DNA of 31,001 nt, taken from assembly GCA_946886865.1 (NCBI GenBank), contig CAMPJI010000021.1:1-31001 (forward strand). Reading direction: 5' to 3'. The position numbers and the translations under genes are program-made. Below the pieces are notes generated by a model. That model saw only the letters and a list, made by a program, of their open reading frames with translations. It ran no database searches and had not been told where the DNA came from. This document shows positions 7,521-21,205 of the stretch, piece after piece. The stretch's first letter is position 1. Each line of letters begins with the position of its first letter. The stretch is from an uncultured Lysobacterales bacterium. GTDB taxonomy: Bacteria > Pseudomonadota > Gammaproteobacteria > Xanthomonadales > Xanthomonadaceae.

Positions 7521-7886
7521 GTGAGTGCCCAACTGCTGATCGTCGACGATTCCACCTCCATGCGGCAGATGGTCGCCTTCGCGCTGTCCTCGGGCGGCTA
7601 CAACGTGCGCGAGGCCGAGGACGGCCAAGCCGCGCTGGACATCGCGCGCACCGCGAAGTTCGACGCCGTGGTCACCGACGTCAACATGCCGCGCATGGAC
7701 GGCATCGAGCTGATCCGCCAGCTGCGTACGCTGCCCGACTACAAGTTCACCCCGCTGCTGATGCTCACGACCGAGTCCGGCGGCGACAAGAAGCAGGAAG
7801 GCCGCGCCGCCGGCGCCACCGGCTGGCTGGTCAAGCCGTTCGACCCGGACCAGCTGCTGGCCACCGTCCGCAAGGTGCTCGGCTAA
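7521..7886 (+). CDS. CheY-type single-domain response regulator, second copy
   Basis: 121 aa from a GTG start with ATGGAGACC just before it. Receiver residues are in place: Asp pair in LIVDDST, phosphoacceptor in VVTDVNMPRMDG, Thr in LMLTTES, and Lys in WLVKPFD. It differs from the first CheY: DVNMPRMDG and the TTESGGDKKQEGRAAGATGW segment are the form seen in regulators that pair with CheA of a second chemotaxis system. Being four bases from the second cheA, it is probably that kinase's own acceptor. It may act as a phosphate sink or as an output regulator rather than binding FliM. There is no output domain. Confidence 0.9.
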   Translation: MSAQLLIVDDSTSMRQMVAFALSSGGYNVREAEDGQAALDIARTAKFDAVVTDVNMPRMDGIELIRQLRTLPDYKFTPLLMLTTESGGDKKQEGRAAGATGWLVKPFDPDQLLATVRKVLG

Positions 7887-7889
7887 GCG

Positions 7890-9878
7890 ATGGACATCAC
7901 CCAGTTCCACGCCGCGTTCTTCGAGGAAAGCCGTGAAGGGCTGGACGCGATGGAAGCCGGCCTGCTGGGGCTGGAGGAATCCGGCCGTGCGGATGCCGAG
8001 ACGGTCAACACCATCTTCCGCGCCGCGCACTCCATCAAGGGCGGCGCGGCGACGTTCGGCTTCGGCGCCGTCACCGACCTGACCCACGTCCTGGAAACGC
8101 TGCTCGACCAGGCCCGCAGCGGCGGCCGCGTGCTCGACCGCGACGCCACCGGCGCGCTGCTGGCGTCGGTCGACGTGCTTCGCGACCTGCTGGCCGTCTA
8201 CGAACAGGGCGGGCCCGACATCGAGGCCCGTATCGATCACGCAGCGCTCGCGCAGGCGCGCGCCGGCCTGGACCGGATGCTGGCAGGAGCCGCTGGCGCT
8301 GCGACCACCACGAGTGCCGCCACGGCGGCGGCCGACACCGGCCCCGACCACTGGCGCATCGCCTTCCACCCGCTGCCCTCGCTGTTCATGAGCGGCAACG
8401 ATCCGCTGCGCATCCTGCGCGAGCTGGCCGGGCTGGGCGAGATGACGGCCGAGTGCCACGACCGCGAGCTGCCGGCATTTGCCGCGCTCGACCCGCATGA
8501 GGCGCACCTGGGCTGGACGCTGACGCTGCCGGGCACGGTCAAGCGCGGCGACATCGACGAAGCGTTCGCGTGGGTCGAGGACCAGTGCGAGCTGGAGATC
8601 GAGGCCGTCGCCCAAGTCGAAGCCGCGCCGGTTGAAGCCGACGCCGGCGCTACCGCGAATACACCCGCCGCCAATTCACCCGCGCGCGGCGGCAATGACG
8701 CCGATACGTCCATCCGCGTGGCGGTCAACAAGGTCGACGCGCTGATCAACCTGGTGGGCGAGCTGGTCATCACCCAGGCGATGCTGCGCCAGCGCGCGCA
8801 GTCGCTCGACCCGGTCGCCAACGAGGCCCTGCTGTCGGGGCTGGAGCAGCTGGACCGCAACACCCGCGACCTGCAGGAGTCGGTGATGGGCGTGCGCATG
8901 CTGCCCGTCGAGTTCGCCTTCAGCCGCTTCCCGCGCATGGTGCGCGATGTCGCCTCGCGCCTGAACAAGAAGGTGCGCCTGAAGACCTCCGGTGAAGCCA
9001 CCGAGCTGGACAAGGGCGTGATCGAGAAGATCGTCGACCCGCTGGTGCACCTGATGCGCAACGCCATCGACCACGGCCTGGAGTCGCCGGAAGAACGGCG
9101 CGCGGCGGGCAAGGACGAGACCGGCACCATCAGCATGAGCGCCGCCCACCAGGGCGGGCACATCATCATCGAGGTCGGCGACGACGGCCGCGGCCTGGAC
9201 CGCGAGCGCATCCTGCGCAAGGCCGCCGAACGCAACCTGCCGGTCCCCGATGAGCCCACCGATTCGCAGGTGTGGGACCTGGTGTTCCACCCCGGCTTCT
9301 CCACCGCCGATGCGCTGACCGACCTGTCCGGCCGCGGCGTCGGCATGGACGTGGTCAAGAGCAACATCGTCGCGCTGGGCGGCAACGTCGAGATCCGCAG
9401 TGCACGCGGCCAGGGCAGCACCATCTCCATCCGCCTGCCGCTGACGCTCGCGATCATGGACGGCATGTCCGTGGCCGTCGGCGACGAGGTCTTCATCATC
9501 CCGCTCAACATGGTGGTGGAGTCCCTGCAGCCCGGGCCCGGCGACGTGCGCACGGTGACCAACGAGGGCCGCGTGCTGCGCGTGCGCGACGAGTTCCTGC
9601 CGCTGCTCAACCTGGCCGCCACCTACGGCCTGCCCGCGCAGCGCCGCGACGACGCCGCCCCGCCCATCGCGGTGGTGGTGGAGTGCGACGGCCGCAAGCT
9701 GGCGCTGGAAGTCGACGAACTGGTCGGCCAGCAGCAGGTCGTGGTCAAGAACCTGGAAGCCAACTACCGCCGCATCGACGGCGTCTCCGGCGCCACGATC
9801 CTCGGCGACGGCCGCGTCGCGCTGATCGTCGACGCCGGCGGCCTGGGCCAGGCCGCGCGCCTGCCCGCCGCCGCCTGA
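7890..9878 (+). CDS. cheA: Chemotaxis histidine kinase CheA (second copy, with P2)
   Basis: 662 aa. P1 Hpt with His47 in FRAAHSIKGGAATF; a folded P2-like domain from about 154 to 240 (HWRIAFHPLPSLFMSGNDP to FAWVEDQCELEIE), which normally docks CheY or CheB; P3 from about 275 (IRVAVNKVDALINLVGELV); P4 kinase with the N box VHLMRNAIDHG (387-396) and GRGVGMDVVKSN; and a CheW-like P5 at the end. All catalytic boxes are intact. Unlike the first CheA at 1557, this one has a classical P2, so the two kinases probably choose their acceptors differently. It follows the second cheY by three bases and precedes cheW by 30. The cheR, cheD and cheB genes downstream probably serve the same arrays. Confidence 0.96.
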   Translation: MDITQFHAAFFEESREGLDAMEAGLLGLEESGRADAETVNTIFRAAHSIKGGAATFGFGAVTDLTHVLETLLDQARSGGRVLDRDATGALLASVDVLRDLLAVYEQGGPDIEARIDHAALAQARAGLDRMLAGAAGAATTTSAATAAADTGPDHWRIAFHPLPSLFMSGNDPLRILRELAGLGEMTAECHDRELPAFAALDPHEAHLGWTLTLPGTVKRGDIDEAFAWVEDQCELEIEAVAQVEAAPVEADAGATANTPAANSPARGGNDADTSIRVAVNKVDALINLVGELVITQAMLRQRAQSLDPVANEALLSGLEQLDRNTRDLQESVMGVRMLPVEFAFSRFPRMVRDVASRLNKKVRLKTSGEATELDKGVIEKIVDPLVHLMRNAIDHGLESPEERRAAGKDETGTISMSAAHQGGHIIIEVGDDGRGLDRERILRKAAERNLPVPDEPTDSQVWDLVFHPGFSTADALTDLSGRGVGMDVVKSNIVALGGNVEIRSARGQGSTISIRLPLTLAIMDGMSVAVGDEVFIIPLNMVVESLQPGPGDVRTVTNEGRVLRVRDEFLPLLNLAATYGLPAQRRDDAAPPIAVVVECDGRKLALEVDELVGQQQVVVKNLEANYRRIDGVSGATILGDGRVALIVDAGGLGQAARLPAAA

Positions 9879-9908: not shown

Positions 9909-10409
9909 ATGAGCACCGCCACCACCCAGAACGACGCCCACGCCAGTGATGCCGTGGTCGAGGAGTACCTGACCTTCACCCTGGCGGACGAGGAATACGG
10001 CGTCGACATCCTGAAAGTGCAGGAGATCCGCGGCTACGACGCCGTCACCCGCCTGCCCGACGCGCCGGACTTCATCAAGGGCGTGGTCAACCTGCGCGGC
10101 ACCATCGTCCCGGTGGTCGACCTGCGCCTGAAGTTCAAGATGAAGGACGTCGGCTACGGCCCGACCACGGTGATGATCGTGCTCAACGTCGCCGACCGCG
10201 TCGTCGGCATGGTGGTGGACGCGGTGTCGGACGTGATCCGCCTCACCCCCGACCAGGTCCGCCCGGTGCCGGAGATCGTCTGCACGATCGACCGCAAGTT
10301 CCTCACCGGCATCGGCACCGCCGAAGACCGCATGCTGGTGCTGCTCGACATCGAGCACCTGATGACCAGCGCCGAGATGGGTCTGGTGGCCGAGGCGCTG
10401 GCGGCATAG
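9909..10409 (+). CDS. cheW: Chemotaxis coupling protein CheW
   Basis: 166 aa, the usual CheW length, with GAAGGA seven bases before the ATG. A short polar N-terminus (1-20) is followed by a single CheW fold: VEEYLTFTLADEEYGVDILK, IRGYDAVTRLPDAPDFIKGV, VVNLRGTIVPVVDLRLKF, and DRVVGMVVDAVSDVIRL. It bridges receptors and CheA. It ends the STAS-cheY-cheA operon and is followed by a strong intrinsic terminator at 10439. The last 70 bases of the gene occur a second time downstream (10565-10634) as part of a tandem duplication. Confidence 0.95.
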   Translation: MSTATTQNDAHASDAVVEEYLTFTLADEEYGVDILKVQEIRGYDAVTRLPDAPDFIKGVVNLRGTIVPVVDLRLKFKMKDVGYGPTTVMIVLNVADRVVGMVVDAVSDVIRLTPDQVRPVPEIVCTIDRKFLTGIGTAEDRMLVLLDIEHLMTSAEMGLVAEALAA

Positions 10410-10438
10410 CGCACGCGCTACCATCCCCCTCGAACAAG

Positions 10439-10469
10439 AAAAGGCCCGCTTCGCGCGGGCCTTTTTCGT
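10439..10469 (+). terminator. Intrinsic terminator after cheW
   Basis: GGCCCGC-TTCGC-GCGGGCC stem-loop followed by TTTTT and preceded by AAAA, 30 bases after the cheW stop. A strong rho-independent terminator; the A-rich left side could let it work on both strands. Confidence 0.92.
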
Positions 10470-10474
10470 TACAC

Positions 10475-10562
10475 CGTAGCCCGGGTAAGGTCACCGGCCG
10501 CACCCGGGATTGCCGCGAGGTGAGGCATGACAACCCCCGGGTGCGCTGCGCTTACCCGGGTA
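10475..10562. repeat. REP/MITE-like element, copy 3
   Basis: Begins CGTAGCCCGGGTAAG and contains GGCCGCACCCGGGATTGCC and CGGGTGCGCTGCGCTTACC. The right end is cut at CCCGGGTACT, where the duplicated cheW fragment starts, so its last bases have been lost or changed at the junction. Confidence 0.85.
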
Positions 10563-10564
10563 CT

Positions 10565-10634
10565 CTGCCTCGACATCGAGCACCTGATGACCAGCGCCGA
10601 CATGGCCCTGGTGGCCTAGGCACTGGCGGCATAG
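10565..10634 (+). pseudogene. Duplicated 3' fragment of cheW (broken)
   Basis: CTGCCTCGACATCGAGCACC and the bases up to GCGGCATAG repeat the last 70 bases of cheW (10341-10409) with a few changes, including one inserted C near the start and a change making GCCTAG, an in-frame stop before the old one. With the terminator and repeat copy after it, this is the second unit of a tandem duplication of about 224 bases. It has no start and cannot make a protein. Confidence 0.85.
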
Positions 10635-10661
10635 TCAGCACCCGTCGAACTACGCAAACAG

Positions 10662-10692
10662 AAAAGGCCCGCTTCGTGCGGGCCTTTTTCGT
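10662..10692 (+). terminator. Second copy of the cheW terminator
   Basis: GGCCCGC-TTCGT-GCGGGCC then TTTTT. Differs from the copy at 10439 only by TTCGC to TTCGT in the loop. It sits 223 bases downstream of that copy. Confidence 0.88.
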
Positions 10693-10697
10693 TACAC

Positions 10698-10788
10698 CGT
10701 AGCCCGGGTAAGGCCACCGGCCGCACCCGGGATCGCCGCGAGGTGATGCATGACAACCCCCGGGTGCGCTGCGCTTACCCGGGCTACG
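10698..10788. repeat. REP/MITE-like element, copy 4
   Basis: Both 15-bp ends are intact (CGTAGCCCGGGTAAG and CTTACCCGGGCTACG). Very close to copy 3; the last part of the duplicated unit. It ends four bases before the stop codon of the convergent minus-strand gene. Confidence 0.85.
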
Positions 10789-12195: not shown

Positions 12196-14877
12196 ATGTC
12201 CAACCCCCTTCCCTCGAACCTTCTGGACCGTGCGCTGGCGCCGTCCACGCGCCTGATGGCGCGGCTGCGCTTCGGCCAGAAGGCCATGGTGATCGGCGCC
12301 GCCTTCGCCCTGACGTGCGCGGTGCTGGCCGGCATCGTGCTGGTGCGCGCCAACGAAGAGATCGGACAGGCGCAGATGCAGCTGACCGCCAACGACGGCA
12401 TCGCGCACCTGCACGACGCCATGCTGGCGATGCAGGCGCACCGCCAGATGGTGACGCGCCTGGCGGCGAAGGACGGCGTGGCGCCGGCCGAGATGGCCAC
12501 CGCCGCGACCCAGGCCAATGCCGCGCTCGCCGAGTTCGGCCGCTGGCAGGGCGAGGAAATCCCGGACGCCCCCGTCGCCAACGCCCTGAAGGCCGCGCAG
12601 GCCGCCTGGGTCAAGGCCACGGCCGCCAACGAGGACCTGTTCGCGCAGGCCGAGTTGCACAACGACGCGCTGTTCCACGTGCGCGGCATGATGCGCGAGG
12701 TCTCCGAGTACACCGGCCTGACCCAGGCCAACGACCCGGCCGTGTTCTACACCGGCCGCGCGTCCACCGAATGGCTGCCCTCTCTGGCCGAATACACCAC
12801 GCAGCAGGGCGCGGTGGCGATCCGCGTGCTGGGCGAGGGCTCGATCTGGGTCGAGGACCGCACGGGTCTTGCGATCTCGCAGAACATGCAGGAGTTCGTG
12901 CGCAGCCGCATCGAGCTGGAGCTGGCCAACGCCGAAGCCGCCGACCCCGCCCTGGCCGAAACGCTGGGCGGCCCGGTGCGCCGCGCGCTGGAGGCGATGG
13001 ACAAGCAGAACGCGGCCATCCAGGCCAACGTGCTGGATGCGGACATGATGGAAATGCCGGTGGCGTCCATGGCCGCCCGCGAGAACGCGACCCGCCTGGC
13101 GATGGCCGTGGCGCTGGAAGGCTCGGAGGCCGCGCTGGTCGCCGCCGCCGAGAACGAGATCGGCGCGCTGAAGTCCGAGCGCGCCTCCACGATGCTGGTC
13201 TGCCTGCTGGTGCTGCTGCTGTCGGGCTACCTGTTCCTGGGCTTCAGCCGCAGCACGCGCAGCTCGCTGCGCGAGATCCAGACCGCCGCCGAGTCGCTGG
13301 CCGTGGGCCAGTTCCCGGAACGGGTCAAGGTCGACAGCCGCGACGAACTGCGCGTCATCGCCGACAGCCTGGAACAGGCGGTGGGCAGCCTGCGCCGGTT
13401 CTCCGACGCGCAGGGCCATGTATTCGAGGCCCACCAGGCCGGCAACGTCAACGAGCGCCTGGACGCGGAGTCCTTCCCGGGGTCGTTCGGCGTCATGGCC
13501 GACGAGATCAACACCCTGGTCTCCTCGCACATCGACCTGCAGACGCGCGTCATCGAGCTGGTCGACGCCTACGGCCGCGGCGACCTGTCGCAGGACATCG
13601 AGCGCCTGCCGGGTGAGAAGGCCCGCATCACCGAGGCCGTGGACGCGGTGAAGTCGCGCATGCTGGACGTCAACGGCGAGATCAAGCGCCTGGTGGACGC
13701 GGCGGTGGAAGGCGACTTCAGCCAGCGCGGCAATGCCGACCGCTTCGAGTTCGTCTACCACGACATGGTGCAGGGCCTGAACGCGCTGATGGACAGCGCC
13801 GACCGCGGCGTCAGCGAGATCGGCGCCCTGCTGCGCGCGGTGGCCGACGGCGACCTCACGCAGGAAGTCGATGCCACCCTGCCCGGCCAGTTCGGCGAAC
13901 TGGCGGCCAATGCCAACGGCACCGTGCGCCAGCTGGCGACGGTCGTCGGCCGGATCCGCGCCGGCAGCGATTCGATCAACGCCGCCGCCGGCGAGATCGC
14001 CTCGGGCAACAACGACCTGTCGCAGCGCACCGAGCAGCAGGCCGCCTCGCTGGAGGAAACCGCCTCGTCGATGGAGGAGCTGACGTCGACGGTGCGCCAG
14101 AACGCCGACAACGCGCGCCAGGCCAACCAGCTGGCGATCGGCGCGGCCGATGTCGCCGAGCAGGGCGGCCAGGTGGTGGGCAAGGTCGTGCAGACGATGA
14201 GCGCGATCAACGACTCGTCGCGCAAGATCAACGACATCATCGGCGTCATCGACGGCATCGCGTTCCAGACCAACATCCTGGCGCTCAACGCCGCGGTCGA
14301 GGCCGCGCGTGCCGGCGAGCAGGGCCGCGGGTTCGCGGTGGTGGCTGCCGAGGTGCGCTCGCTGGCGCAGCGCTCGGCCAACGCCGCCAAGGAGATCAAG
14401 CAGCTCATCACCGACTCGGTCGACAAGGTCGAGGACGGCACGCGCCTGGTGGACCAGGCCGGCAAGACGATGGGCGAGATCGTGACCAGCGTGAAGCGCG
14501 TCAGCGACATCATCGCCGACATCAGCGCCGCCTCGCAGGAGCAGACCACCGGCATCGAGCAGATCAACCAGGCGATCCTGCAGATGGACGAGGGCACCCA
14601 GCAGAACGCCGCGCTGGTCGAGGAAGCCTCGGCCGCCGCGCGCAGCATGGAGCAGCAGTCCGTGCAGCTGGCGCAGATGGTGGCGTCGTTCCACCTGGCC
14701 GGCCACGAGGACGGCGACGCCAAGGCCACGCCGCGTGCCGCCGGCAACATCGAGGTCAACCACGGCCACCACGGCGCGCGCCATGCGCGCACGCCGGCCG
14801 CCCCGCGTCCGCGTCCGCCAGCCCGCAAGCGCGGCGCCAACGGCGGTGGCAACGAGCAGCACTGGCAGGAGTTCTGA
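12196..14877 (+). CDS. Methyl-accepting chemotaxis protein with stacked HAMP modules and a WxxF tail
   Basis: 893 aa. Membrane helix 1 at about 31-50 (MVIGAAFALTCAVLAGIVLV); a helical periplasmic sensor of about 280 residues; helix 2 at about 332-351 (LVCLLVLLLSGYLFLGF); then a HAMP and at least three more HAMP-like modules, recognisable by repeated GDLSQDIE, GDFSQRGN and GDLTQEVD segments (about 450-580). The signalling hairpin tip is near 687-725 ([36 protein letters not shown]). Methylation-type Gln/Glu clusters flank the tip. The C-terminus is a flexible Arg/Pro/Gly linker ending HWQEF, like the NWETF tether that binds CheR and CheB in enterics. The ligand cannot be told from sequence. 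It may be first in an operon with the GGDEF/EAL, cheR, cheD and cheB genes. Confidence 0.95.
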   Translation: MSNPLPSNLLDRALAPSTRLMARLRFGQKAMVIGAAFALTCAVLAGIVLVRANEEIGQAQMQLTANDGIAHLHDAMLAMQAHRQMVTRLAAKDGVAPAEMATAATQANAALAEFGRWQGEEIPDAPVANALKAAQAAWVKATAANEDLFAQAELHNDALFHVRGMMREVSEYTGLTQANDPAVFYTGRASTEWLPSLAEYTTQQGAVAIRVLGEGSIWVEDRTGLAISQNMQEFVRSRIELELANAEAADPALAETLGGPVRRALEAMDKQNAAIQANVLDADMMEMPVASMAARENATRLAMAVALEGSEAALVAAAENEIGALKSERASTMLVCLLVLLLSGYLFLGFSRSTRSSLREIQTAAESLAVGQFPERVKVDSRDELRVIADSLEQAVGSLRRFSDAQGHVFEAHQAGNVNERLDAESFPGSFGVMADEINTLVSSHIDLQTRVIELVDAYGRGDLSQDIERLPGEKARITEAVDAVKSRMLDVNGEIKRLVDAAVEGDFSQRGNADRFEFVYHDMVQGLNALMDSADRGVSEIGALLRAVADGDLTQEVDATLPGQFGELAANANGTVRQLATVVGRIRAGSDSINAAAGEIASGNNDLSQRTEQQAASLEETASSMEELTSTVRQNADNARQANQLAIGAADVAEQGGQVVGKVVQTMSAINDSSRKINDIIGVIDGIAFQTNILALNAAVEAARAGEQGRGFAVVAAEVRSLAQRSANAAKEIKQLITDSVDKVEDGTRLVDQAGKTMGEIVTSVKRVSDIIADISAASQEQTTGIEQINQAILQMDEGTQQNAALVEEASAAARSMEQQSVQLAQMVASFHLAGHEDGDAKATPRAAGNIEVNHGHHGARHARTPAAPRPRPPARKRGANGGGNEQHWQEF

Positions 14878-15002: not shown

Positions 15003-17195
15003 ATGATCAGCGACGACCTGCACCCCGACGCCGACCCCGATGCCGCCGACACCGCCGGCGGCGCGGAGTTCGATGACCTGATCGCCCTGGCCACCGACCT
15101 GCTCGGGGCCCGCGGCGCGGGCATCGCGGTGGGCCGCCACGCGCACGCGCGCTGGATCGCCGGCCTGCACATGCCGCCGGCCGCCGGGCTGGAGGCGCTG
15201 TTCGCCGCCACCGACACCGATGCCGGCGCACTGCACATCGCCACGGCCGACGCCGACCCGGCGCGCCCGGGCCCCGTGCTGTCCGTCGCGGGCATCGCCC
15301 TGTCCGACCCCGCCGGCCAGCCGCTGGGGACGCTGTGCGTGGCCGGCGATGCGCTGCCGCCGCCGGCGGCGCTCGAGCCCGGCCTGCGGCGGCTGGCGCG
15401 GCTGGCGACGCGGCTGCTGGAACGCCACCAGCTGCAGCGCCGCAACCGCATCGCCGCGCAGATCATGCAGGCCGATTTCAGTGCGGTGGTGGTGACGGAC
15501 GACGACGGTTGCATCGCGTTCGCCAACCGTGCCGCGCAGCGGATGTTCGGCCGCGGCGCGCGCGCGATGCGCGGCACGCCGCTGGCGGTGCTGTTCCCGG
15601 CCCACCTGCAGGGCGATGCCGACGCCGTCGCGCGGTTCCTGCACGCCATGGGCGAGGGCGGGCCGGCGGTGCCCGAGGCGGTCCACCTGCGCATCCCCGG
15701 CGAGGGCGACAGCCGTCGCACGCTGGAGGCCGCGCGATGCAGCTGGCGCCTGGCGCGCGGCCAGGGCATCGCCCTGATCCTGCGCGACATCACCGACCGC
15801 CTGCAGCAGGAAGACCGGCTGCGCCGCATTGCCCTGTTCGACCCGCTCACTGGGCTGCCCAACCGCAACGGCCTGACCGAGGCGCTGGAGCGGCTGCAGG
15901 CCGGCGGCGAATCGCGCATCGGCCTCGCGCTGGTCGACCTGGACCACTTCAAGGCGATCAACGACACGCTCGGCCACGCCTTGGGCGACCGCGTGCTGCG
16001 GCGTGCGGCCGCGCGCCTGCGCCGGGCGCTGCCACCGGGCGCGATGGCCGCGCGGCTGGGCGGCGACGAGTTCGCGCTGGCCTTCACCGGGATGGACGTC
16101 GAGCAGGCCGGCGTTGCCCTGGCGCGCGCGCTGGATGCCCTCGCGCGCCCGCTGCGGCTGGACGGCCACCACGTGCACCTGGAGGCCAGCGCCGGGCTGG
16201 CGATGAGCCGGCACGACCACGACGACGAGGCGCTGCACGACCTGCTCGCACGCGCCGACCTGGCGCTCTACAAGGCCAAGGGCGACGGCCACCGGCAGGT
16301 GGCGGTGTTCGAGGCGTCGATGCGCGAGGAGGTGATCGCCCGCCGCCAGCTGGACCTGGAGCTGCGCCAGGCCTGCGCGCGCGGCGAGTTCGAGCTGCAT
16401 TACCAGCCGCAGGTCGACCTGCTGACCGGCCGCACCGTGGGCGCCGAGGCGCTGCTGCGCTGGCGCCACCCGCGCCGCGGCCTGCTGTCGCCGGTCGACT
16501 TCATCGACGCGCTGGCCGCCAGCCCGGCCGCGGCCGAGGTCGGCGGCTGGATCCTGCGCCAGGCGTGCCTCGACGCCGCGCGCTGGCCGCAGGTGGACGG
16601 CCGCGATGTCGCCATCAGCATCAACCTGTTCCCGGTGCAGGTGAACGACGGCCGCCTGCAGGCCGACGTGGACCGCGCCCTGGCCGACAGCGGGCTGGCC
16701 CCGAACCGGCTGGAACTGGAAATCACCGAATCCATCGCGCTGCGCCCCGACGACCACGCCGCGCTCGCGCTGGCCGCGCTGCGCGCGCGCGGCATCGGCC
16801 TGGCGTTCGACGACTTCGGCACCGGCTTCGCGTCGCTGTCGCTGCTGCAGCGCTTTCCGATCGACCGGATCAAGATCGACCGCTCGTTCGTGCGCGACAT
16901 GCTGGCCAACCGCGACGACGCGGCGATCGTGCGCTCGATCGTGCTGATCTCGCGCAACCTCGACCTGCGCGTGGTGGCCGAGGGCGTGGAGCACGACGAC
17001 CAGGCGCAACTGCTGCGCGGCCTGGGCTGCCACGGCGCGCAGGGCTTCCTGTATGCGCCGGCGCTGGACGCGGCGGCGTTCGACCTGTGGCTGGCGCGGC
17101 ACTTCCGCAACCCGGCCGATGCGCCGGTCGCCACGTCCGTGGCCGCGGTGCCCGACGCCGCCGCGGCGCAGCCGCCGGTGCACGGCCATGGCTGA
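15003..17195 (+). CDS. PAS-GGDEF-EAL cyclic-di-GMP enzyme in the che operon
   Basis: 730 aa, no signal peptide or membrane segment. An N-terminal GAF-like region (about 18-140, ending in SDPAGQPLGTLCVAG), a PAS domain (about 155-270: DFSAVVVTDDDGCIAFANRA), a GGDEF domain with an intact GGDEF (353-357), and an EAL domain with EAL (482-484), ITESIAL, DDFGTG (603-608) and VAEGVE. Both halves have their catalytic signatures, so it could make and break cyclic-di-GMP. The RxxD inhibitory site before GGDEF is absent, so the cyclase half would lack product inhibition. Its end overlaps cheR by eight bases, tying its translation to cheR and suggesting that it links second-messenger level to receptor adaptation. 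Which activity dominates cannot be read from sequence. Confidence 0.93.
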   Translation: MISDDLHPDADPDAADTAGGAEFDDLIALATDLLGARGAGIAVGRHAHARWIAGLHMPPAAGLEALFAATDTDAGALHIATADADPARPGPVLSVAGIALSDPAGQPLGTLCVAGDALPPPAALEPGLRRLARLATRLLERHQLQRRNRIAAQIMQADFSAVVVTDDDGCIAFANRAAQRMFGRGARAMRGTPLAVLFPAHLQGDADAVARFLHAMGEGGPAVPEAVHLRIPGEGDSRRTLEAARCSWRLARGQGIALILRDITDRLQQEDRLRRIALFDPLTGLPNRNGLTEALERLQAGGESRIGLALVDLDHFKAINDTLGHALGDRVLRRAAARLRRALPPGAMAARLGGDEFALAFTGMDVEQAGVALARALDALARPLRLDGHHVHLEASAGLAMSRHDHDDEALHDLLARADLALYKAKGDGHRQVAVFEASMREEVIARRQLDLELRQACARGEFELHYQPQVDLLTGRTVGAEALLRWRHPRRGLLSPVDFIDALAASPAAAEVGGWILRQACLDAARWPQVDGRDVAISINLFPVQVNDGRLQADVDRALADSGLAPNRLELEITESIALRPDDHAALALAALRARGIGLAFDDFGTGFASLSLLQRFPIDRIKIDRSFVRDMLANRDDAAIVRSIVLISRNLDLRVVAEGVEHDDQAQLLRGLGCHGAQGFLYAPALDAAAFDLWLARHFRNPADAPVATSVAAVPDAAAAQPPVHGHG

Positions 17196-18069
17196 GGCCC
17201 TCGCCCGTCGACGCGGTGCTGACCACGACGTGCGCGAGGCGCGCGATTTCGAGTTCACCGAGCGCGACTTCCGGCGCATCTCGCGGCTGATCCAGGCACG
17301 CGCCGGCATCCACCTCAGCGACCACAAGCGCGACATGGTCTACGGACGACTGGCACGCCAGCTCCGGATGCACGGCCACACCCGCTTCTGCGATTACCTG
17401 GACGCGCTGGAGGCCGACGCGGGCCCCGAGTGGCAGGACTTCGTCAATGCGCTGACGACCAACCTGACCTCGTTCTTCCGCGAGGCCTACCACTTCGACA
17501 TGCTGGTCGAGCACCTGCGCGCGGCCGGCCCCGGCCCGCACACGATCTGGTGCTGCGCTGCATCCACCGGCGAGGAGCCCTATTCGATCGCGATCGCGGC
17601 ATGCGAGGCGTTCGGCACCGACACCCCGCCGGTGCGTATCCTGGCCACCGACATCGACACCGCGGTGCTGGAAACCGCGCGCGAAGGCGTCTACCCGCTG
17701 GAGCGCATCGGCCTGCTGACGCCGGAACGCAAGCGCGCGTTCTTCCTGCGCGGCAACGGCCCCAATGCCGACCTGTGCCGCGTGCGACCCGCCCTGCAGC
17801 AGCTGGTGACGTTCCGCCCGCTCAACCTGCTGGGCGACGGCTACGGGCTGCGGGGCGGGTTCACCGCGGTGTTCTGCCGCAACGTGATGATCTATTTCGA
17901 CAAGCCGACGCAGTACCGCGTGCTGCAGCGGATCGTGCCGCTGATGGCACCGGGCGGCGTGCTGTTTGCCGGCCACTCGGAGAGCTTCACGCACGCCCAC
18001 GACCTCATCGAACCGTGCGGGCGCACGAGCTATCGCGCCGCCGGCCGCACGCGCGGAACCGCGCCGTGA
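17188..18069 (+). CDS. cheR: Chemoreceptor methyltransferase CheR
   Basis: 293 aa from the ATG at 17188, eight bases inside the end of the GGDEF/EAL gene. N-terminal helical domain ([20 protein letters not shown], then [16 protein letters not shown]), the hallmark TNLTSFFRE (91-99), the S-adenosylmethionine site [16 protein letters not shown] (123-138), the acidic turn ATDIDT, and [10 protein letters not shown] (about 229-238), then [11 protein letters not shown]. It methylates glutamates on receptors to adapt their sensitivity. A pentapeptide-dependent CheR would bind the HWQEF tail of the receptor at 12196, and this pairing fits the gene order. The stop overlaps the GTG of cheD by four bases. 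Confidence 0.95.
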
Positions 18070-18719
18070 ACGCCGTGGCCCGCAGCGTCCGCCGCGCGTT
18101 GCCGTCGGTCCCGGCCGAGCCGGTGACCTACTACGACAGCGCCATCGAGAGCGAAGCAATCAAGCTGCTGCCGGCCGACTATGTGGTCACCGACCGCCCG
18201 GTCGCGCTGGTGACGCTGCTGGGCTCGTGCGTGGCCGCGTGCCTGTACGACCCGACCATGGCCGTGGGCGGCATGAACCACTTCATGCTGCCCGACGGCG
18301 GCGTGTCCGACGGCGATGCGCGTGCGGTGCCGGCCGGCGGCGACACCGTCAGCGCGCGCTACGGCATGCACGCGATGGAGCTGCTGATCAACGACCTGCT
18401 CAAGCGCGGCGCACGCCGGCAGCGGCTGCTGGCCAAGGTCTTCGGCGGCGGCAACGTGCTGAGCGGCTTCCAGACCGACCCCATCGGCACGCGCAACGCG
18501 CGCTTCGTGCTGGAGTACCTGCGCGCCGAGCGCATCCCGGTGCTGGCCGAGGACCTGGGCGACATCCACCCGCGCAAGGTCTGCTTCTTCGCGCAGACCG
18601 GGCGCGCGCTGGTGCGCCGCCTGCCCGCCACGCGCGAGGCGGAGATCGCCAAGCTCGAACGCGCCTACTACGGCCAACTCACACAGGCGCCTGTTGCAGG
18701 CAGCGTGGAACTGTTTTGA
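18066..18719 (+). CDS. cheD: Chemoreceptor glutamine deamidase CheD
   Basis: 217 aa from a GTG overlapping the cheR stop. The catalytic Cys55 is in [13 protein letters not shown], and His72 is in GGMNHFMLP, 17 residues later as in the Thermotoga enzyme. Further family segments are [29 protein letters not shown] and [13 protein letters not shown]. It converts receptor glutamines to glutamates and in Bacillus also partners the CheC phosphatase. Unusual: the C-terminus ends in AGSVELF, exactly the last seven residues of the receptor-like protein at 20039-21205, encoded with different codons. The tail lies outside the catalytic fold and may be a docking peptide. The gene overlaps cheB by one base. 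Confidence 0.95.
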
Positions 18720-20038: not shown

Positions 20039-21205
20039 ATGGACCCCCGCGTACTGATCCGCCTTGCAGCGCCCCTTGCGCTCACCCTGATCCTCACCAT
20101 CGCCGAGATCCTCGGTTGGCCGCTGGCCGTCCGCCTCGGCACGATGGCGGCGATGACCCTGGCCTGGCTGGCGTTTGCCTGGAGTGCCTACCGCCCGGCG
20201 GAAGCCAATGCGCTGTCGCGCGAGCAGACGCGCCTACTGGAGGAACTGCGCAACTTCGTCGGTTCGGAAGTCTCCGGCTCCAAACAGGAAATCGAACGCA
20301 CCCGCGAGCTGATCCGCGAGTCGGTCGCCAAGCTCGGCTCCAGCTTCGATGCGGTCAACCGCAAGTCGCGGCAGCAGGGTGAAGTGGTGGCCCGCATCAT
20401 CGACCGCACCGGCGACGACGGCGCGGGCGTGGACGTGCAGCAGTTCGCGCTGCAGGCCAGCCAGAAGATGGAACAGCTGGTGGAAGCGCTGGAAGCCGTC
20501 GCCGGCCAGAGCGGTACCACCGTGACCCACATCGACGCCATGGCCGAGCACCTGGACGGCATCTTCGCGCTGCTGGAGGACGTCAAGTCAATCGCCGACC
20601 AGACCAACCTGCTGGCGCTCAACGCCGCCATCGAGGCCGCGCGTGCCGGCGAAGCGGGCCGCGGCTTCGCGGTGGTGGCCGACGAGGTGCGCAACCTGTC
20701 GGAGCGCTCGACCGCCTTCAACGAACAGATCCGCAAGCTGGCGCACAGCTCGAAGGAATCCATCGCCAAGGTGCGCGACACCGTCACCACCATGGCCTCG
20801 CGCGACCTGGACCGCTCGCGCGGTGCCCGCGTCGAGGCGGCGGCGATGCTGGAGCGCGTGGACGGCATCAACCGCGGCCTCGGCAACGGCATGCGCGAGA
20901 TCGCCGAGTGCGGCCGCGCGATCGACGGCTCGGTGGCCGAAGCCGTGCGCTCGCTGCAGTTCGAGGACATCGCCACGCAGGCGCTGGGCGCCGCCAACCT
21001 GCACCTGGAGCGCCTGAGCGCGATCAACCAGGAAGCCACTGCCCTGCACGACCTGCTGCACCGCAGCCACCACGACTCCGAGGTCAAGCAGGCGCTGGGC
21101 AAGCTGGTGCAGCGCATCGGCCAGATGCGCAGCGAGTGGGAGCGCCCGCCGCACAAGCCGGTGATGCAACAGTCGATGGACGCCGGCAGCGTCGAGCTCT
21201 TCTGA
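20039..21205 (+). CDS. Small membrane-anchored receptor-like protein with CheZ-like motif and VELF tail
   Basis: 388 aa from ATG 20039. Two membrane helices close together (about 5-25 and 30-50) leave no periplasmic sensor, and no HAMP follows. Then comes a long coiled coil with the receptor hairpin tip at about 185-218 ([33 protein letters not shown]), so it can probably join receptor arrays. After the tip, at 307-314, is QFEDIATQ: Asp310 and Gln314 have the same spacing as the catalytic Asp and Gln of CheZ (QDLTGQ). It ends AGSVELF, as CheD does. It may be a membrane-bound CheY-P phosphatase or adaptor rather than a sensor; this is inference. Usual automated name: methyl-accepting chemotaxis protein. 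It is followed by a strong terminator at 21234. Confidence 0.85.

What the first reader, a model, noticed from the sequence alone, without database searches (positions are those of the whole stretch)
20039..21205. Receptor-like protein carrying a CheZ-like active motif
After the receptor signalling tip, the protein has QFEDIATQ with Asp310 and Gln314 in the same relative places as the catalytic Asp and Gln of CheZ (QDLTGQ in the CheZ of this window). It has no sensor domain and no HAMP, only a short membrane anchor. A receptor-array component that carries a CheY-P phosphatase motif would place signal destruction at the array or membrane rather than at the motor. Similar proteins may be known under generic receptor names; I cannot rule out an earlier description. 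The motif match is short, so the function is inference.
Basis: partly seen in the sequence, partly recalled or inferred. Interest (0 to 1): 0.75.

Follow-up and report, generated by a model that had tools for sequence, protein, structure and literature searches.

The report
Chemoreceptor-like protein with CheZ-style site
A receptor-like chemotaxis protein whose role is a known puzzle carries, in nearly every relative examined, the two catalytic residues of the signal-erasing enzyme CheZ, so it may switch the swimming signal off at the membrane rather than sense anything.

Summary
Window 20039-21205 encodes a 388-aa receptor-like protein with two predicted membrane helices, no sensor domain, no HAMP, and QFEDIATQ with Asp310 and Gln314. 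By gene order and homology it is the McpA-like receptor of an F7 chemosensory cluster (CttP/PA0180, VCA1088, SO_2117), whose function Ortega et al. 2020 call unclear. FxDxxxQ is absent from 27 control receptors. A CheZ profile aligns in register (score 37.9; shuffles at most 26.7; control receptors 21.2), but the register rests on the motif itself. Magnetococcia-type soluble versions have a degenerate tip but intact motif and C-terminal tail; their tandem paralogs lost Asp and tail together. Most likely this is a membrane-anchored CheY-P phosphatase. Against or unresolved: no enzymology; most carriers also have CheZ; the Magnetococcia-type genomes have CheX; the published deletion has no swimming defect; Pfam does not call it CheZ; the tail also occurs on CheD.

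The parts
20039..21205 (+). McpA-like receptor (388 aa): two predicted membrane helices, MCP hairpin, CheZ-like site, conserved tail
   Evidence: family identified through
20045..20188 (+). membrane hairpin, residues 3-50 (two predicted helices)
   Evidence: AlphaFold2 helices 3-25 and 29-50; hydrophobic sequence
20309..20347 (+). conserved N-helix block, residues 91-103 (L99, F103), inferred to lie roughly level with the motif in the hairpin
   Evidence: F103 43 of 44 and L99 41 of 44 in A2; F103 85 of 85 in A3; the level is inferred by counting residues on the secondary structure
20591..20710 (+). receptor signalling tip, residues 185-224
   Evidence: conserved block; MCPsignal 134-299
20954..20980 (+). 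LQFEDIATQ with Asp310 and Gln314, counterpart of CheZ FQDLTGQ
21137..21205 (+). conserved C-terminal tail [22 protein letters not shown], low confidence (disordered) from residue 375
   Evidence: pLDDT under 50 for 375-388; G383 and F388 85 of 85 in A3
18066..18719 (+). cheD of the F7-type cluster, ending in the same GSVELF
   Evidence: PF03975
18719..19813 (+). cheB of the F7-type cluster (by reading the translation)
17188..18069 (+). cheR of the F7-type cluster
12196..14877 (+). HAMP-repeat MCP in the Aer2-like place, C-terminus HWQEF, pentapeptide-like
7890..9878 (+). cheA of the F7-type cluster
7521..7886 (+). cheY of the F7-type cluster, candidate substrate
   Evidence: PF00072
923..1555 (+). 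cheZ of the F6-type cluster (catalytic Asp147/Gln151), used as reference
   Evidence: PF04344
534..926 (+). cheY of the F6-type cluster (by reading the translation), alternative substrate

Best explanation
The protein is the F7-cluster McpA-like receptor, and most likely a membrane-anchored CheY-P phosphatase built on a chemoreceptor scaffold. Its MCP hairpin tip docks it in a receptor array. Beyond the hairpin, the C-terminal helix presents Asp310 and Gln314, which would act on phosphorylated CheY as the CheZ Asp/Gln pair does (Gln positions the attacking water, Asp orients CheY; mechanism recalled). The flexible tail ending GSVELF is probably a docking tag of a kind shared with CheD. Substrate: either the CheY of the F7 cluster, which has no CheZ of its own, or the flagellar F6 CheY at the array where such receptors are reported. 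Shown: architecture, gene place, invariance, profile match. Inferred: helix-surface geometry, catalysis, substrate, tail partner.
For: F308, D310 and Q314 are invariant in 45 of 45 non-redundant sequences, the only invariant columns outside the tip over residues 85-325; D and Q in 151 of 151 loci of that set, 85 of 85 in A3 and 73 of 73 in A4. hhalign of 35 CheZ against the 45 aligns FQDLTGQ to FEDIATQ, score 37.9, probability 51%; against 28 control MCPs 21.2 and 1%; 60 column shuffles reach at most 22.7 and 60 seven-column block shuffles 26.7. Soluble Magnetococcia-type relatives have Val for the tip Glu in 48 of 48 that parsed (of 73) but the motif in 73 of 73: the site is kept without a normal tip. 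In 6 of 6 tandem loci the first copy lost both Asp and tail. Residues after the Asp: 54-93 in the 45, 74-88 in the 12 CheZ printed (whose printed values count the Asp). F7 clusters are reported to have cheY but no cheZ (passage).
Against: No activity has been measured. With F, D and Q randomised the CheZ alignment falls to 30.2 and leaves the register. The hydrophobic profile match outside F, D and Q is not distinctive (0.52; one other McpA register and two control registers are higher). So common descent with CheZ is unproven. P0001 has no Pfam CheZ hit at E up to 1. Pfam CheZ scores 6 of 10 relatives below cut-off, but those 6 had been picked from a CheZ search, the 4 others gave 0, and unrelated coiled-coil families score as well. 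CheZ Thr and Gly of DLTGQ, invariant in 35 CheZ, are not conserved here. Of 65 genomes with a McpA-like match of 96 bits or more, 60 also have CheZ (read by eye). The 37 Magnetococcia-type genomes have no CheZ over the cut-off but CheX in 37 and CheC in 34. Deleting McpAso had no effect on swimming, and three other receptors raised swimming as its overproduction did.
Confidence: 0.58

Rival explanations
1. The site binds CheY, or another receiver domain such as that of CheB, without dephosphorylating it: a phosphate sink, a docking surface for CheB or CheD, or a clamp that links the F6 and F7 systems.
For: Asp plus Gln on a helix also suits receiver binding (inference); the tail is a pentapeptide-like tag shared with CheD; CheZ Thr and Gly are not conserved.
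Against: Strict invariance of exactly the catalytic pair, with the residues between them free to vary, is what catalysis predicts more than binding.
Confidence: 0.17
2. A structural element of short receptors: the conserved LQFxDxxxQ and the N-helix block pack together to end the signalling bundle, with no enzymatic role.
For: F103 and L99 on the N-helix are conserved along with the motif; the fold search returns MCP cytoplasmic domains first and then long helical proteins, CheZ not in the best 50.
Against: With a 3.5-residue period, D and Q fall away from the hydrophobic side in both McpA-like and CheZ helices (with a period of 3.6 and other stretches this holds less well). Five short MCPs of 380-404 aa do without the motif. 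First copies of tandem pairs kept the helix but lost the Asp.
Confidence: 0.15
3. An ordinary chemoreceptor (CttP is listed for chloroethylenes) whose C-terminal motif merely recalls CheZ.
For: Literature assigns CttP to taxis (passage); McpAso clusters at the pole depending on CheA3 and its overproduction behaves as for other receptors.
Against: No sensor domain or HAMP; the soluble relatives lack both membrane anchor and a normal tip yet keep motif and tail.
Confidence: 0.1

Closest known systems
McpA-like receptors of F7 systems (PA0180/CttP, VCA1088/Mlp44, SO_2117/McpAso)
   Same: Same gene order (cheR, cheD, cheB, mcpA-like), short transmembrane architecture, conserved C-terminus without pentapeptide; a Vibrio homolog in that order aligns over 94% of the query
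   Different: The published passages seen here name the conserved C-terminus but no CheZ-like site; the site and its invariance are what this study adds. The three named proteins themselves were not fetched
CheZ (PF04344)
   Same: FxDxxxQ in a helix, in the C-terminal part of the protein, followed by about 75 residues that end in a conserved peptide
   Different: Receptor tip and membrane anchor; Thr-Gly between Asp and Gln not kept; different tail; no Pfam hit for the window protein
CheC/CheX/FliY phosphatases
   Same: Remove phosphate from CheY-P (recalled)
   Different: Different fold and motif (recalled); a CheX gene lies about 5 kb from the soluble relative in G286 and G292
Other short HAMP-less MCPs (CZB-type label recalled)
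   Same: Short receptor-like proteins
   Different: L199, L200, L201, L204 and L205 have no FxDxxxQ

Membership tests
McpA-like receptor of the F7 cluster | gene after cheR-cheD-cheB of an F7 cluster | tested here: met
   gene order; order described in a PMC7184735 passage. The F7 class of the cluster is inferred from gene order, not from a class model
McpA-like receptor of the F7 cluster | predicted transmembrane region, no sensor domain | tested here: met
McpA-like receptor of the F7 cluster | conserved C-terminus without the CheR pentapeptide | tested here: met
   tail GSVELF; definition from PMC7184735 section 11
McpA-like receptor of the F7 cluster | physical association with the F6 array | not testable with these tools
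   published for relatives
CheZ | PF04344 above its curated cut-off | tested here: not met
   no hit for the window protein at E up to 1; six preselected relatives at 18.6-22 bits against 30.7
CheZ | FxDxxxQ with invariant Asp and Gln | tested here: met
CheZ | homology to CheZ beyond the motif | tested here: inconclusive
CheZ | CheY-P phosphatase activity | not testable with these tools
   needs purified proteins
CheZ | C-terminal CheY-binding helix (DDLLxSLGF type; role recalled) | tested here: not met
   tail is GSVELF; the 12 CheZ printed end DDLLxSLGF
MCP chemoreceptor | MCPsignal domain with intact tip | tested here: met
   PF00015 95.5 bits; tip

The most novel reading that the evidence does not exclude
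McpA-like receptors and their soluble relatives form a widespread class of receptor-derived CheY-P phosphatases in Pseudomonadota: the F7 system supplies a phosphatase that sits in the flagellar F6 array and drains CheY-P there, which would be the missing F7-to-F6 link; in Magnetococcia the tip has degenerated and a near-dedicated phosphatase, with an inactive tandem partner in some species, is left.
Probability: 0.45. Interest if true: 0.85.

Novelty: new variant of a known kind. Interest (0 to 1): 0.7.

Why it matters
Ortega et al. 2020 state that it is unclear what McpA-like receptors do for the F7 system while sitting in the F6 array, and that the role of their strikingly conserved C-terminus is unclear. 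A CheZ-like site in the helix before that C-terminus turns the puzzle into one enzyme assay with two point mutants. If it holds, some 'chemoreceptors' are not sensors, and one chemosensory system could damp another through a shared array.

Tried and rejected
Rejected: 'the soluble Magnetococcia-type relatives replace CheZ as the only phosphatase'. The 37 genomes have no CheZ over the cut-off (four of them have weak sub-cut-off matches in frames of 599-917 aa) but all have CheX and 34 have CheC. The 37 were picked by score and open-frame length; 12 loci were read at motif and tail.

Rejected: 'the GSVELF tail is a CheY-docking peptide specific to this protein'. CheD of the same cluster has it. 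In 29 parsed of 30 CheD loci from McpA-like genomes, 22 have the strict tail, six have near variants by eye, and one was a wrong ORF; not every such CheD lies in the McpA-like cluster. It is also on 7 of 11 CheDs from plasmid records, with no motif-bearing MCP found in the 4-6 kb flanks. It now looks like a pentapeptide variant with an unknown partner.

Weakened: 'McpAso overproduction raises swimming, as a phosphatase would'. Three other receptors did the same.

Weakened: 'Pfam CheZ recognises the family'. All six Pfam-positive relatives (L186-L190, L193) had been preselected from the CheZ search; the other four tested (L195, L202, P0242, L132) gave no CheZ hit. In the six, counting back from the end of the matched stretch puts the Asp at profile position 129, where the window CheZ has its catalytic Asp; counting from the start gives 129-136. 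The one search list also holds sub-cut-off matches in longer, unrelated frames.

Inconclusive: hydrophobic-profile correlation; fold search. AlphaFold2 monomers have pTM 0.39 and 0.41, so no geometry is claimed from them beyond helix limits. No CheY complex could be modelled. A tail DNA pattern gave 6 hits in 4 of 5 genomes, five of them McpA-like or CheD ends and one without a matching closed ORF; it is strict on codons and misses real tails.

Selection: L086-L115 were the best matches of an alignment that contains the motif, and the 40 regions L116-L155 were chosen by score and open-frame length, so '151 of 151' describes this family, not short MCPs at large, and many of the 151 are close kin. 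One search compared residues 85-325 only. Wider sets: 13 of 18 parsed of 20 loci have [FY]xDxxxQ (L193 and L196 shifted by 1-2 positions; L191 and L192 did not parse); of L327-L346, 17 of 20 have it in register, two shifted, one lacks it. L143 was in the 45 but left out of A2.

Full report
What is there. Window 20039-21205 (+) encodes 388 residues. Pfam sees only MCPsignal (134-299) above cut-off. AlphaFold2 places helices at 3-25, 29-50 and 53-125, a break, helices to 342 and 346-368, and a low-confidence end 375-388 (mean pLDDT 77, pTM 0.39). QFEDIATQ puts Asp at 310 (20966-20968) and Gln at 314 (20978-20980). The window holds two chemosensory clusters: an F6-type one with cheY, cheZ, cheA and motor genes from 534, and an F7-type one with STAS, cheY, cheA, cheW, a HAMP-repeat MCP, cheR, cheD, cheB and this gene (STAS, cheB and the first cheY are named by reading the translation, and the F6 and F7 classes by gene order). 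One named genome contig encodes an identical protein (MAG Lysobacterales bacterium RIFOXYA1_FULL_69_10).

Identity. A 29.7%-identical Vibrio protein covering 94% of the query lies in the order cheW, MCP, cheR, cheD, cheB, short MCP (genes named by reading). That is the place of the McpA-like receptor of F7 systems. From Ortega et al. 2020 (PMC7184735; passages, section 11 read): McpA-like receptors (PA0180, VCA1088) are not needed for the F7 array, are reported to associate with the F6 array, have a strikingly conserved C-terminus of unclear role, and only F6 systems include cheZ in genomes with stage 1 or 2 F7 systems. From PMC9855816 (passages, section 22 read): McpAso clusters at the pole depending on CheA3 and CheW3. 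PMC7534058 (passages) lists VCA1088 as a 24H receptor without experimental reports.

Conservation. A search of 274 class-level genomes with A1 found matches in 195; 65 genomes have one of 96 bits or more (my count), and the weaker ones, which look like other MCPs, were mostly not read. From 134 loci with a recognisable tip, reduced to 45 sequences below 75% identity, and over residues 85-325, the only invariant columns outside the tip are F308, D310 and Q314; Q307 is 44 of 45 and L306 43 of 45. D and Q are in 134 of 134, and in 17 of 17 loci first dropped by my tip pattern. In A2 (44 sequences over the whole length, the others 23-42% identical to the query) the invariant columns outside the tip are Q307, F308, D310, Q314 and the last residue F388. 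The residues between Asp and Gln vary. In larger lists D and Q are in register in 117 of 119 close relatives (two displaced), 120 of 120 of the A2 search list, and 47 of 48 parsed soluble ones (one displaced).

Controls. Thirty MCP loci from six genomes gave 29 MCP ORFs; two have D and Q at those offsets without the Phe, 0 of the other 27 have FxDxxxQ, and 18 of the 27 have some DxxxQ nearby. Five short MCPs (L199, L200, L201, L204, L205) lack the motif.

Comparison with CheZ. hhalign of 35 CheZ against the 45 gives score 37.9, probability 51%, with FQDLTGQ on FEDIATQ; 28 control MCPs give 21.2 and 1%. Column shuffles reach 22.7 and block shuffles 26.7 at most, 60 each; the reversed alignment 25.2; randomising F, D and Q gives 30.2, and randomising 304-316 gives 29.1, both in another register. 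A CheZ HMM scores McpA-like proteins above controls (median 3.1 against -0.6 bits; the sequences are related, so the test is only indicative). Pfam CheZ hits 6 of 10 relatives at 18.6-22 bits, below its 30.7 cut-off; the six were preselected, and the Asp falls on profile position 129, that of the window CheZ, when counted from the match end. Other coiled-coil models score alike. The likeness is strong at the site and unproven beyond it: convergence and common descent are both open.

Soluble relatives. A phylum-level search found proteins of about 331-370 aa without membrane helices. Their named kin are nearly all Magnetococcus or Magnetococcales. In the first 73 new proteins of that list the motif is in 73 and an ELF or DLF tail in 72; the tip Glu is Val in the 48 that parsed. 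In six tandem loci the first copy has FEE or YEE in place of FED and no tail; in the three whose second copy I read (L306-L308), it keeps both. This is one lineage, so it may be a single event. Of 37 such genomes none has CheZ over the cut-off, but 37 have CheX and 34 CheC.

CheZ co-occurrence. Of the 65 genomes, 60 have CheZ over the cut-off (by eye). Of the five without (G076, G207, G109, G222, G090) four have FliM and none has CheC; CheX was not searched there, and genome completeness is not given.

Tail. CheD of this cluster also ends GSVELF. The same kind of ending is on CheDs from other groups without a motif-bearing MCP in the flanks. The partner is unknown.

Judgement. Literature searches (open-licence full texts only) listed no paper that I saw to describe this site; of most listed papers I saw only the listing.

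Noticed in passing
window 10344-10788: Tandem duplication with a period of about 225 bp that includes the 3' end of cheW and the stretch after it (92% and 97% identical blocks).
   Followed up: no
window 3399, 7006, 10535, 10758, 25188: A 31-nt GC-rich repeat (CCCGGGTGCGCTGCGCTTACCCGGGCTACG type), five copies, REP-like.
   Followed up: no
window 15003-17195: A GGDEF-EAL gene sits between the HAMP-repeat MCP and cheR of the F7-type cluster.
   Followed up: no
window 18700-18719; L236-L265; L351-L358: CheD and McpA-like proteins share a C-terminal tag G-x-[VI]-[DE]-L-F; several CheDs from other proteobacteria carry it or a variant too.
   Followed up: partly
L306, L307, L308, L347-L349: Tandem McpA-like pairs in Magnetococcia-type genomes, in one open frame in L307; the first copy has lost the Asp and the tail.
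   Followed up: partly
L186-L190, L194, L195, L197, L198, L202, L203: A further short-MCP subgroup with a QFQDR-type motif; 10 of these 11 end in FF.
   Followed up: partly
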